This document shows positions 23,848-27,758 of a DNA stretch of 64,000 nucleotides, piece by piece. The notes beneath the pieces were generated by a model. It searched no databases, was not told where the DNA came from, and was given only the letters and a program-made list of their open reading frames with translations. Numbering within the stretch: position 1 is the stretch's first letter; each line of letters starts with the position of its first letter. The DNA is taken from the NCBI RefSeq assembly GCF_000763495.1, contig NZ_CP009576.1:1498001-1562000 (forward strand), given 5' to 3'. Position numbers and translations under genes: made by a program. Source of the stretch: Listeria ivanovii subsp. londoniensis (GTDB taxonomy: Bacteria; Bacillota; Bacilli; Lactobacillales; Listeriaceae).

Positions 23848-23882
23848 CAACGAATTCCTGTTTTTTAGGGTTCGTTGTTTTT
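23846..23882. terminator. Bidirectional terminator between the yqgU-like gene and comGG
   Basis: AACAACGAA pairs with TTCGTTGTT, extended by TCCT/AGG, around a loop containing a T6 run. T follows on the plus strand and T-rich sequence on the minus strand. The comGG stop codon (23865-23867) lies within the hairpin and the plus-strand stop codon at its foot. Confidence 0.85.
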
Positions 23883-24197
23883 GGCTATACTCATATTTTT
23901 TGAAAGCTGGTAGCCATTTTCTAAAAGAATTTGGCATTTGAATTCATTGGACTTATTATCGATAGATGTACACTTAATTTCAGAACGACCATATTTTTCT
24001 GTAAAATTTGATTGGACAGGTGCTTTTTTTATTTTAATAATGGTTAAATTAAGTTCCGCTGAAGCCAAGTAATAGTTTTGGATCATCTTTTCGTATTCCA
24101 CCTGCCTTTTAAAAATAGAGGCGCTACCAGTAACAATTAAGATAGTTAGCAAAGCGATAAAGATAGTAAAAGGAAGTGTAAATGCATTTTGATTCAT
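23865..24197 (-). CDS. comGG: ComG operon protein ComGG, minor pseudopilin
   Basis: ComGG is a minor component of the competence pseudopilus, which draws DNA through the cell wall. The 110-residue protein has a type IV pilin-like N-terminus (NQNAFTLPFTIFIALLTILI) followed by a variable globular part with two cysteines (KCTS and KCQI). The prepilin processing site is atypical for the family, as in Bacillus ComGG. Its ATG overlaps the comGF stop by four bases. Identification depends on position as last gene of comG. Confidence 0.82.
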   Translation of the reverse strand: MNQNAFTLPFTIFIALLTILIVTGSASIFKRQVEYEKMIQNYYLASAELNLTIIKIKKAPVQSNFTEKYGRSEIKCTSIDNKSNEFKCQILLENGYQLSKNMSIAKNNEP

Positions 24198-24661
24198 GGC
24201 TGTTCCTTTGTTTTGGATAGTGGAAAGCGAGAGGTATAGAATGTCGAATCTGAGAAATCAACTTCTAAGATTAATTGATTATTATTTTTTATAAACCGCC
24301 ATTCTTTTATTTGGGCTAATAAAGGCTCATGTCCTTTGCCATCCACTTGTCGTCTTAGTACGTTATTAAATTTTGTATAAGTGATTTTTTTGTTTTCTAC
24401 TTGAAAAGATAATTGCTCTTTTTCTACTTTAACATTACTTGCTTTTTCCCACTCTAATCGCATCTGAATTAAAAAAAGTTGCCATTCCGTCGTTTGATCT
24501 AAATTACTAAGTTCGATAGTTTTGTGATAGCATTGAAAAAATAGTGGGATAAGCGAGCTAATACTTAAAATAATTGTAATGGAGAGGATAGTCTCGAGTA
24601 GCGTAAATGCTGGAGAAGCATCTTTATAATATACATTTTTCTGTCCGTTTATTTTTTGCAC
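24194..24661 (-). CDS. comGF: ComG operon protein ComGF, minor pseudopilin
   Basis: This 155-residue protein has a pseudopilin-like N-terminal hydrophobic segment (SPAFTLLETILSITIILSI) with Ala in place of the usual processing-site Gly, followed by a ComGF-type domain ending KEWRFIKNNNQLILEVDF-like. GTG 24661 is preferred because GGAGG lies 11 bases upstream; ATG 24679 has no site. It overlaps the end of comGE by 38 bases in another frame. Its partners are the other ComG pseudopilins. Confidence 0.82.
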   Translation of the reverse strand: MQKINGQKNVYYKDASPAFTLLETILSITIILSISSLIPLFFQCYHKTIELSNLDQTTEWQLFLIQMRLEWEKASNVKVEKEQLSFQVENKKITYTKFNNVLRRQVDGKGHEPLLAQIKEWRFIKNNNQLILEVDFSDSTFYTSRFPLSKTKEQP

Positions 24662-24908
24662 AAATTTGAATACCTCCATTTTCGTGATAACTTTTTAATT
24701 GATTATCGTTAAAATTGATAGGGATACTACCGTGTAGTAATAATTCACTATGCTCAAACAGCTGTTGGTGAAGCGTACTTAATTCTTTTTCTTGCTCTAT
24801 TCTTTGAAATATAGTTAGAGTGAGAGGGAGTAAAAAGCTGCAAACTAAGGAGAATAACAAGAGAGAAACCATACTTTCAACTAAAGAAAATCCATTAATC
24901 CGGTTCAA
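24624..24908 (-). CDS. comGE: ComG operon protein ComGE, minor pseudopilin
   Basis: The 94-residue product starts NRINGFSLVESMVSLLLFSL, a type IV prepilin leader with Gly-Phe processing site, Glu at mature position 5 and a hydrophobic helix. The likely start is TTG 24908, with AAAGGGG ten bases upstream; another TTG at 24929 is possible. It overlaps the comGD end by 14 bases. The short C-terminal part has two cysteines (QICAKNKRTEKCIL) that could form a disulfide after export. Confidence 0.8.
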   Translation of the reverse strand: MNRINGFSLVESMVSLLLFSLVCSFLLPLTLTIFQRIEQEKELSTLHQQLFEHSELLLHGSIPINFNDNQLKSYHENGGIQICAKNKRTEKCIL

Positions 24909-25323
24909 TTCTAAAGCGCCCCTTTCCAATTTGAAATATTAGTTTGTAGTTGTTAGCTTTACCAATAAAGCGAACGGTGGTAAAGCGATTAATAGAACCA
25001 GCCGAACCTGAGAAACAAAATTTTTCTAATCTCTGCGGATTTAATTTTAGCGAATTAGAAAATGGGACTGTGATAAGAGAATTATTCATAGTAGCAACTG
25101 TTAATTGATTTTCAGGGGATGAAAAAGTAATCATTGTGTCTTGGCCACTCGTAATCGCATTTAGCTGAGCATAATATATAGTAGCTTTTATTTCTTCTAA
25201 TAGTTGTTTTTCGGTAAGCGTTGAAAGGCTATTTGATATTGGGAAGATCGTTAAGGTTATCATAGTAAGACTGATGGATAAGACAAGTAACATTTCTAGT
25301 AATGTAAAAGCGTTAGTTTTCAT
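24895..25323 (-). CDS. comGD: ComG operon protein ComGD, pseudopilin
   Basis: This 142-residue protein begins MKTNAFTLLEMLLVLSISLT, a type IV prepilin leader with FTLLE, processed by the prepilin peptidase ComC at the Ala-Phe bond in this case. The C-terminal part shows GSAGSINRFTTVRFIGKANN-like sequence common in ComGD. Its ATG overlaps the comGC stop by four bases, indicating coupled translation. Confidence 0.85.
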   Translation of the reverse strand: MKTNAFTLLEMLLVLSISLTMITLTIFPISNSLSTLTEKQLLEEIKATIYYAQLNAITSGQDTMITFSSPENQLTVATMNNSLITVPFSNSLKLNPQRLEKFCFSGSAGSINRFTTVRFIGKANNYKLIFQIGKGRFRIEPD

Positions 25324-25643
25324 TTGTTTTCGGAAACATTTCCTGAACGATCGATTGTAATACTATTTCCATTAGGACATGATTTTTGATTAGCTTTTAA
25401 GTAACCACCACTTACTAAATCACTAACAGAAGGCATTGCATTTTTTTCTAGTTGATAAGACTGAACTTGGCCTTGAACCATCGAAACAAATGCCTCGCAC
25501 CCCTTGTTATTAATAGATTCACTTTGGGAAACGATATTTGGAATGGTTAATAACAATAAAACACTAACAACTAATAAAACTATAAGCATTTCCACTAAAG
25601 TAAAACCACGTTCATCACGCCAATCGATTTTTCTTTTAAACAT
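25320..25643 (-). CDS. comGC: Major competence pseudopilin ComGC
   Basis: ComGC is the main building block of the competence pseudopilus. The 107-residue prepilin has a basic leader, the GFTLVEMLIVLLVVSVLLLL processing and helix motif, and a small globular domain with two cysteines (NKGCEAF and KSCPNG) expected to form an intramolecular disulfide. AAGGAGG precedes the ATG. The reading frame is intact, so the pilin subunit itself is preserved although the ATPase gene upstream is broken. Confidence 0.93.
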   Translation of the reverse strand: MFKRKIDWRDERGFTLVEMLIVLLVVSVLLLLTIPNIVSQSESINNKGCEAFVSMVQGQVQSYQLEKNAMPSVSDLVSGGYLKANQKSCPNGNSITIDRSGNVSENK

Positions 25644-25656
25644 GTAAACTTCCTCC

Positions 25657-26688
25657 TTAAATTTGATTTACCATTGAAAACATTGGATATAGAATAGAGA
25701 GATAAATAGATATGATTAAAATGCCAATAATAATAAATACAACAGGTTGAATAAAAGAGAATAGTTTTTCTGTTTTTATTAAAGCTTTTTGGTGACAAAG
25801 ATTGTAGTAAAATAGTAATTCTTCCGCTAAACGTCCATTCTTTTCTCCATGCGCAACTATATAATAAAGTTCTTTTTCAAAAACAGACATTTGTGCTAAG
25901 GCCTTTGTTAAAGGGAAACCTTCTTCAAGGGAGGAAAGAATTCGTTTTGCAATTGCTTGGAAAAATTGTGGGGAAGACTTGCTTTCGAATAATTGCATAA
26001 TATGCGAAATGGACAATCCGCTTTTTAAAAGATAGCCCATTTCACGTGAAAAAATCTGTGAATAATGAATTCGTGAAAATTGACATATATAAGGAATGCG
26101 ACAATAAAAATTAGCCCGTTGATAAGCATTTTTTTGTTTTTGCTTTTTTATAAAGAAACGCATGCTTAAAAAAAGCAGAAGGAAGAAGGCTCCTAAAATA
26201 ATCGGAACTTTTTCTAGTAAAAAATAAGTGAAGCTTGATTCCATTGAACCATTATTAGATAATTGCTCGAATAAAAGTTCGAATTTGGGGAGTAGAAAAA
26301 TCCGTAGTAAAAAGAAAACTAAAATAACTGTAGAGAACAATACGAGCGGATATTGGAAAGCTTTCTTTAAAGCAGTTTGTTCTGCTGCTTTTCGCTGCAT
26401 ATGAATACCGGTTTCGCGGACTGTCTGAATGAAAAAGCCGTGACTTGAGGCATAGTGAAGTTGAGAACATATAAACTCCGGAAAATCATTTTGTTGAAGT
26501 GAATGGGCAAAAGAATTCCCAAGCGAGAGAGAGGCAATAATTTTTTCATAACGAGTATGTTCTTTTGGAGAAGTGATGGTCAAAAAACTAATTGTAGCTT
26601 CGAGAGAAAATCCTTTATCGAGTAAACTAGCGGTTCTGATTAAAAACTCGCCATCATCTTTCCAGTTAATCCTTTTAAAAAAATCCAT
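25657..26688 (-). CDS. comGB: Pseudopilus assembly membrane protein ComGB
   Basis: ComGB is the polytopic PilC/GspF-family platform protein of the competence pseudopilus. The 343-residue protein has the tandem T2SSF domains, with hydrophobic helices near 115-135, 165-185 and the C-terminus (VVFIIIGILIISIYLSILYP). I chose ATG 26688, preceded by AAAGGAA. An in-frame ATG at 26793 would overlap comGA by 119 bases and lacks a site. ComGB overlaps the end of comGA by 14 bases. The reading frame is intact. Confidence 0.93.
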   Translation of the reverse strand: MDFFKRINWKDDGEFLIRTASLLDKGFSLEATISFLTITSPKEHTRYEKIIASLSLGNSFAHSLQQNDFPEFICSQLHYASSHGFFIQTVRETGIHMQRKAAEQTALKKAFQYPLVLFSTVILVFFLLRIFLLPKFELLFEQLSNNGSMESSFTYFLLEKVPIILGAFFLLLFLSMRFFIKKQKQKNAYQRANFYCRIPYICQFSRIHYSQIFSREMGYLLKSGLSISHIMQLFESKSSPQFFQAIAKRILSSLEEGFPLTKALAQMSVFEKELYYIVAHGEKNGRLAEELLFYYNLCHQKALIKTEKLFSFIQPVVFIIIGILIISIYLSILYPMFSMVNQI

Positions 26689-27687
26689 AAGCAATTCCTT
26701 TCTGCTGAATTTCTTGAAGCGTATGTTTAGGTTTCGTTTTTTGTTTATTAGATTGGAAATAAGATTGAATATTTTGTTTAGATAAAACTTCATAAATGGC
26801 TGTTCTTTTCCTTTTCAAATGACTGCAGTGCGGATGACACTTGGGACCACAATAAACACAATATAGATGAACTAATTGTTGAAAACTAATTCCAAGTAAA
26901 CACTGAGCAAGTTCCTCATGGCTGATACCAAATTCTGCTAACCTTAATAAAACACCATAAGAATCACCTGCATGAATAGTGCTTAAAACTAAATGTCCAG
27001 TTAATGCAGCACGAATAACCATTCTTGCTGTTTCTTCATCTCTAATTTCTCCAATAATTAAAATATCAGGGTCATGACGAAGAACTGCTCGAATCAAAGA
27101 AGCATAGTTTAGATGTGCTTTTTCATTAATTTCAACTTGAAGAAATTCTGGGGAGTAGTGTTCCACGGGATCTTCAATCGTTATAACTTGAAGTTCGGAA
27201 TACTTCCTAATAAAAGAAACTAAACTATACATCGAGCTAGATTTTCCGCTGCCAGTGCTGCCAGAAAATAAAAATAAGCCGGTTTTGTGGTGCATTGTTG
27301 AATAATTTGTTCAGTCAAATGTGGAAAAAGACTTGATTTCCTAAACGGAATAGGATTTTTATAACGGAAAATACGAATAACAAGGCTTTCTTGAAAGTCT
27401 TTATTTGGAATGGTAGAAAGTCGTAAAGCAACTTTTTCTGAAGTTAGTTCTTTTTCATAACTTCCGGATTGCGGTTTTCTTTTTTCGCTTATATCTAAAG
27501 CAGCTTGAAATTTAAGAAAAGAAACTAATTTTTCAGCAGTTTCTCTTGGGAGGTAACGGAGCGGGATTAAGGTTCCGTGAACTCTCAGGCGTAATAAATA
27601 ACGGTCTTTGAAAGGGTGAATATGAATATCACTTGCATTAAATTTTAGTGCTTGGGATAGAATATGATCCATTAATTTTTGTGGCAT
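26675..27687 (-). pseudogene. comGA: comGA, pseudopilus ATPase, frameshifted
   Basis: ComGA is the PilB/GspE-type ATPase that powers pseudopilus assembly. The N-terminal frame (ATG 27687 with AAGGAGG) runs through FNASDIHIHPF and then leaves the family after about codon 134, ending at 27220. The second frame from about 27295 resumes with GLFLFSGSTGSGKSSS (Walker A), the Asp-box/Walker B region (DILIIGEIRDEET) and a Cys-rich motif (YCVYCGPKCHPHC). Restoring one A in the coding-strand A4 run (plus-strand T at 27283-27286) joins them into a normal protein of about 337 residues. It is either a real one-base deletion or a sequencing error. As written, no functional ATPase would be made. Confidence 0.9.
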
Positions 27688-27758
27688 AACAACCTCCTTA
27701 CAAGTCATATTCTACATAATTCTTTTAAATCCTTTGCTAGATATTTTTCACAAAAAAT

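What the first reader, a model, noticed from the sequence alone, without database searches (positions are those of the whole stretch)
26675..27687. comGA, the competence pseudopilus ATPase, is broken by a one-base deletion in an A run
Two overlapping minus-strand frames together make a complete PilB/GspE-type ATPase. The break lies in the coding-strand A4 run (plus-strand T at 27283-27286). Adding one A restores the sequence TTKTGLFLFSGSTGSGKS and a protein of about 337 residues. All six downstream comG genes are intact. In L. monocytogenes the Com machinery has been linked to phagosomal escape, so a strain lacking ComGA would be interesting. The homopolymer context also allows a sequencing error or a phase-variable tract.
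Basis: partly seen in the sequence, partly recalled or inferred. Interest (0 to 1): 0.7.

Follow-up and report, generated by a model that had tools for sequence, protein, structure and literature searches.

The report
Broken competence genes in Listeria ivanovii
A DNA-uptake motor gene is split by a frameshift in this Listeria genome, a second gene of the same pathway (the uptake channel) looks broken too, and this is most likely an ordinary recent loss of function in one strain, although a sequencing error cannot be ruled out.

Summary
On the minus strand comGA is split into a 155-residue N-terminal frame (27220-27687) and a 206-residue C-terminal frame (26675-27295), each matching its own part of one ATPase family. 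In 24 of 24 other Listeria genomes held here the gene is one open frame. The interpretation needs three corrections. (1) The genome is not L. monocytogenes; size and kinship fit Listeria ivanovii subsp. londoniensis WSLC 30151, assembled from PacBio reads alone. (2) The A-run is not uniquely the place of the break: the neighbourhood also carries substitutions against the nearest genome, and four bases is short for phase variation. (3) comGA is not alone: comEC, the uptake channel gene, has a net one-base loss too, while 14 other competence genes checked are open. Among 333 aligned genes of the nearest relative, only these two are clearly broken. comG protein change is no faster here than in the sister lineage, so any loss is recent. 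Best reading: recent strain-level inactivation of the Com machinery. Main rival: PacBio indel error at one or both sites. The comE operon was also exchanged with an L. seeligeri-like lineage. Ordinary pseudogenisation, modest interest.

The parts
27220..27687 (-). comGA 5' frame: N-terminal domain, 155 aa, last ~20 residues out of frame
   Evidence: T2SSE 9-134
26675..27295 (-). comGA 3' frame: ATPase core (GSTGSGKS, Walker A, onward), 206 aa; its ATG has no visible ribosome-binding site
   Evidence: T2SSE 139-345
27283..27293 (-). zone of the net one-base frame change, with substitutions against the nearest relative
   Evidence: alignment (13 of its 15 sequences usable there)
27709..27735 (-). 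sigma-H-type promoter of comGA (AAAGGATTT ... GTAGAAT), intact by sequence
   Evidence: pattern as in PMC4754846 table 2
27693..27699 (-). ribosome-binding site AAGGAGG of comGA
25657..26688 (-). comGB, open (T2SSF)
25320..25643 (-). comGC, open (99% identical to relative over 107 aa)
24895..25323 (-). comGD, open (named by position; no Pfam match)
24624..24929 (-). comGE, open (N_methyl prepilin motif)
24194..24679 (-). comGF, open (PF15980)
23865..24197 (-). comGG, open (named by position; no Pfam match)

Best explanation
comGA is a recent loss-of-function allele in this L. ivanovii subsp. londoniensis strain, one of two hits (with comEC) that disable its Com (pseudopilus/DNA-uptake) machinery. 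Mechanism: a net one-base change after about residue 133 of ComGA takes the ribosome out of frame to a stop about 20 codons on. The product would be an N-terminal domain without the ATPase core, so no pseudopilus assembly. comEC likewise keeps its membrane 'Competence' domain but is cut from its metallo-beta-lactamase-like domain. Shown: both breaks in the held sequence, intact copies in relatives, a sigma-H-type promoter and open downstream genes, low dN/dS in the surviving comGA pieces. Inferred: that the bases are real, that the products are inactive, that the strain lacks the Com phenotype.
For: comGA is one frame in 24 of 24 other Listeria genomes. comEC is also cut: open frame 507 versus 753 aa in the two relatives compared, a net one-base loss against both. 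Of 333 aligned genes of the nearest relative, 2 are clearly broken here and both belong to the 16 competence genes, all 16 of which are in that set; one-sided p 0.002, or 0.045 given that comGA was the starting point. The low break rate elsewhere argues against a generally error-ridden assembly. comGA pieces have dN/dS 0.17 and 0.05, and protein changes across comG are 22 on this branch versus 20 on the sister branch, so the loss is young.
Against: The assembly is PacBio-only (PMC4319588), whose typical residual error (recalled) is a one-base indel; no reads could be checked. The enrichment is weak once conditioned on comGA, and vanishes if the published 104 pseudogenes per 3,015 genes is taken as background (P 0.10 for two or more of 16, 0.41 for one or more of 15). 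The lack of any branch-specific relaxation is also what an error would give.
Confidence: 0.62

Rival explanations
1. Assembly artefact: one or both one-base losses are consensus errors of a PacBio RS II P4/C2 HGAP3 assembly and the genes are intact in the strain.
For: PacBio-only data; both breaks are single-base, comEC in a T run, comGA next to an A run; no branch-specific acceleration in comG. The held record is 18 bases longer than the published length, which may mean small later edits.
Against: 184-fold coverage; no other clear break among 333 aligned genes; both hits in one pathway by chance is unlikely on that background; an A4 run is short for a homopolymer miscall (judgement).
Confidence: 0.32
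2. Phase variation: a slipping homopolymer switches comGA (and comEC) on and off in the population.
For: One-base length difference near homopolymers; homopolymer frameshifts are reported in L. monocytogenes inlA and evidence of phase variation in flaR (PMC2831843 passages).
Against: The comGA tract is four bases and is not conserved as a tract in the nearest relative; the comEC T run is not a pure run in the two relatives compared. PMC2831843 has 0 hits for comG, competence, comE and DNA uptake in its main text.
Confidence: 0.03
3. Split but functional gene: programmed frameshifting or separate translation of the C-terminal ATPase gives an active ComGA.
For: The 3' frame has its own ATG upstream of the break and codes for the whole ATPase core.
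Against: No ribosome-binding site visible before that ATG; the same ATG occurs out of frame in the intact gene of the nearest relative; no canonical slippery heptamer by eye; no unusually stable RNA structure in the 93 bases after the break (z +0.79, 153 of 200 shuffles fold at least as well); none of the 24 other genomes has such an arrangement.
Confidence: 0.03

Closest known systems
comGA split by prophage SpST71A in Staphylococcus pseudintermedius ST71 (PMC7029219, passages read)
   Same: Natural lineage-level inactivation of comGA with comK intact
   Different: There by a 44-kb prophage, in all 90 ST71 isolates and 12 others; here by a one-base change in one genome, with comEC also hit
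comK interrupted by prophage A118/phi10403S in L. monocytogenes (Rabinovich 2012, not read; described in PMC4754846 and PMC7029219)
   Same: Com system of Listeria disabled in nature
   Different: That interruption is reversed by excision and hits the regulator; here comK is open and structural genes are broken
Intact comGABCDEFG operon of L. monocytogenes and other Listeria
   Same: Same operon and same sigma-H promoter type (PMC4754846)
   Different: comGA is one open frame in 24 of 24 other genomes held

Membership tests
ComGA / PilB-GspE type ATPase (as gene identity) | T2SSE domain covering N-terminal and ATPase parts | tested here: met
   pieces match PF00437 9-134 and 139-345
ComGA / PilB-GspE type ATPase (as gene identity) | First gene of a comG operon with ComGB (T2SSF), ComGC-type prepilin, ComGF | tested here: met
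   PF00482, PF07963, PF15980 in following frames; comGD and comGG frames without a Pfam match
ComGA / PilB-GspE type ATPase (as gene identity) | Single uninterrupted open frame coding for the complete enzyme | tested here: not met
   two frames; 24 of 24 relatives have one
Pseudogene of comGA | Frame-breaking change specific to this lineage, intact orthologues in relatives, no paralogue to replace it | tested here: met
Pseudogene of comGA | Change present in the cell's DNA, not only in the assembly | not testable with these tools
   no raw reads or second isolate held
Phase-variable gene | Long homopolymer or repeat tract | tested here: not met
   A4 only, tract not conserved in the nearest relative
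Phase-variable gene | Tract length varies between cells | not testable with these tools
   no reads held

The most novel reading that the evidence does not exclude
A strain of an intracellular animal pathogen has lost both the pseudopilus motor and the DNA channel of its Com system in quick succession, after exchanging its comE operon, with a sigma-H promoter, with an L. seeligeri-like lineage. It would be a natural double mutant for asking whether the Com machinery matters in L. ivanovii, and whether the machinery is selected against as a whole.
Probability: 0.35. Interest if true: 0.45.

Novelty: new member of a known kind. Interest (0 to 1): 0.28.

Why it matters
If the two breaks are real, WSLC 30151 is a natural strain without a working Com pseudopilus and DNA channel. 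It would then bear on whether these genes, for which transformation was not found in L. monocytogenes but which are linked there to phagosomal escape (PMC4754846), are needed in L. ivanovii. If they are errors, pseudogene lists drawn from this reference genome mislead. Either way this genome should not serve as the competence reference for the species without re-sequencing.

Tried and rejected
L. monocytogenes as the source: rejected on kinship (nearest named record L. immobilis at 86% protein identity for the C piece, nearest genome 92% DNA) and on genome size. A replacement ComGA paralogue: none found. Prophage in comK: comK open. Branch-specific decay of comG: not seen. Recoding signal: no unusual RNA structure (the control stretch from the relative in that call is offset, so only the own fold counts). 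Homopolymer paper PMC2831843 as a direct precedent for competence genes: 0 hits for four terms.

Searches for prior mention: 'Listeria' with 'comGA' gave 40 listings; 'Listeria ivanovii' with 'comEC' one, listing only; 'WSLC 30151' only its genome announcement. Six further searches gave background. Read: PMC4319588 whole; PMC4754846 sections 6 and 7 and passages; passages of PMC7029219, PMC2831843 and PMC11472951; everything else only as search listings. Most subscription journals are not covered.

Of the 10 genes flagged short, two are comGA and comEC. The other eight: clpX (name recalled from its sequence) and L124:16895 are start extensions; comGC is a start extension (full 107 aa matched, not gap-checked); Gwin:11937 is antisense to an rbfA-like frame (name recalled); L070:10637 is antisense to minus-strand genes; L070:14563 has no gaps; L096:17926 and L132:16720 are gap-rich and poorly conserved and were judged non-coding. 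Three genes without a hit were not followed up. Of ten further own stretches fetched for the survey, four had no aligned counterpart in the relative's stretches fetched and three only a partial one, so the survey covers 355 kb of 476 kb. An earlier survey on a smaller sample gave the same two breaks.

Full report
What was checked. The minus strand at 26675-27687 holds two overlapping frames. The upstream one, from the ATG at 27687 behind an AAGGAGG site, gives 155 residues, of which about the first 133 are native ComGA. The downstream one gives 206 residues and carries the ATPase core, beginning with GSTGSGKS (Walker A; motif name recalled). Searched apart, they match PF00437 (T2SSE) at profile positions 9-134 and 139-345. 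In a whole-genome search this genome shows two T2SSE matches, one on each side of the break, whereas each of the 24 others has one continuous comGA match (one of them, G009, has a further T2SSE protein elsewhere).

Comparison with relatives. 25 Listeria genomes were searched, own included. Both pieces of comGA fall in one and the same open frame in 24 of 24 others. The alignment puts the net one-base difference within about 27283-27293. Two of its fifteen sequences (L005, L007) were in the opposite orientation and are misaligned, so I read it from the other thirteen, own included. This genome also carries substitutions in that stretch relative to its nearest relative, so the loss cannot be pinned to the A4 run alone.

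Which organism. The window lies in a single contig of 3,045,035 bases. The nearest genome, G013, is a single contig of 2,919,550 bases, 92% identical over the region. The announcement PMC4319588 (whole text read) gives 3,045,017 bases for L. ivanovii subsp. londoniensis WSLC 30151 and 2,919,538 for L. ivanovii subsp. ivanovii WSLC 3010. G013's comGA promoter also equals the L. ivanovii promoter of PMC4754846 table 2. The announcement says PacBio RS II P4/C2 reads, HGAP3, 184-fold coverage, 104 pseudogenes and 3,015 genes for WSLC 30151.

A second break in the same pathway. The comEC 'Competence' domain lies in an open frame of 507 aa here against 753 in both relatives compared, G013 and G020. 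Across the genus the open frame is 713 aa or longer in 22 of 25 genomes, and short or broken in this one, in G007 (491 aa) and in G001 (three pieces); the last two are drafts listed at 93% and 89% completeness, so they may be artefacts. The break here is a net one-base loss in a T run, relative to both relatives. The C-terminal piece carries the metallo-beta-lactamase-like domain. The 14 other competence genes examined are open and match the relative over at least 90% of their length: comGB-GG, comEA, comEB, comK, coiA, dprA, comC, comFA, comFC. comFA, comGD and comGG were named by position and sequence, from recall.

Background rate. I fetched stretches of both genomes; 355 kb of 476 kb of own sequence aligned. 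Of 333 genes of the relative (80 aa or more, at least 95% aligned), 320 are covered to at least 90%, 3 had no hit and 10 were short. On inspection only comGA and comEC are clear breaks of real genes (the eight others are told one by one under Tried and rejected). All 16 competence genes are in the set. Two of 16 against 0 of 317 gives p = 0.002; conditioned on comGA having been the starting point it is 0.045, and if 1 or 3 of the other flags were real breaks that conditional value rises to 0.09 or 0.17. The 16 genes were chosen because they are competence genes, and part of the sampled stretches were fetched around them. With the published pseudogene rate as background the clustering is not significant (0.10 and 0.41). 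The reverse comparison flags 11 of 335 own genes as short in the relative; these were not inspected one by one, and none is a competence gene by position.

Age of the loss. In the comGA pieces dN/dS against the relative is 0.17 (N, 89th percentile) and 0.05 (C, 45th percentile), the median being 0.06 over 322 frame pairs, which include the two comGA and two comEC fragment frames. dS of the C piece (0.41) is about twice the median (0.19), unexplained. Most other comG genes also lie high in the dN/dS distribution (75th to 99th percentile; comGC 32nd), so they change faster than typical genes. But with L. seeligeri-like G020 and L. immobilis as outgroups, amino-acid changes in comG are 22 on this branch and 20 on the sister branch, with 50 ambiguous (sum over the eight rows). 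So comG shows no decay peculiar to this branch, which fits a young mutation and equally an assembly error.

Mechanism. The early product lacks the whole ATPase core. The later frame starts at an ATG that has no visible ribosome-binding site and that is present, out of frame, in the intact gene of the nearest relative. No unusual RNA structure follows the break. The likely result is no working ComGA. Since the ComG proteins and ComEC are required for transformation in B. subtilis (stated and cited in PMC4754846), either break alone should stop it. Possible reduced expression of comGB, whose start overlaps the end of comGA, is inference.

What is known. PMC4754846 (sections 6 and 7 and passages read) states that the one published test found no competence in L. 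monocytogenes and that prophage excision restoring comK has been tied to phagosomal escape (citing Rabinovich 2012, which I did not read). Natural comGA inactivation by prophage is described in S. pseudintermedius (PMC7029219, passages). [quoted passage not shown] The present case is a small member of this known kind. I found no paper on these two genes in WSLC 30151 with the searches, which do not cover most subscription journals; of the 40 listings only two papers were opened.

Verdict. The frameshift is in the sequence, is unique among the genomes held, and has a partner in comEC. I favour a real, recent strain-level loss (0.62) over an assembly artefact (0.32). It is ordinary biology of modest interest until re-sequenced.

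Noticed in passing
G000:C1:about 1681000-1686250 (L069:4000-9250), outside the window: The comE operon and neighbours (comEA, comEB, comEC, a methyltransferase-like gene) are 86-98% identical to the L. seeligeri-like genome G020 but 68-88% to the nearest relative G013, with sharp edges beyond which the pattern reverses: a recombination tract of about 5 kb, direction not settled.
   Followed up: partly
L069:8146-8172 (minus strand), upstream of comEA: A sigma-H-type promoter (AAAGGAATT ... GGCGAAT) stands before comEA here and in G020, but my pattern finds none in G013; PMC4754846 table 2 lists it as not found in L. ivanovii. It lies within the exchanged tract. The -35 that the table gives for L. 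seeligeri differs from the one in G020.
   Followed up: partly
G007:C9:27649-28431 and G001:C12:123548-124332: comEC is also short (491 aa) or in three pieces in two other Listeria draft genomes; real or draft error not resolved.
   Followed up: no
window 26675-27274: Synonymous divergence of the comGA C piece from the relative (dS 0.41) is about twice the median of 0.19 over 322 frame pairs.
   Followed up: no
G013 stretches L138, L136, L104, L134: Several frames intact in the window's genome look split in the relative G013; not inspected one by one.
   Followed up: no
whole genome record: The held assembly is 18 bases longer than the published length of WSLC 30151, and the relative 12 bases longer than WSLC 3010.
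   Followed up: no
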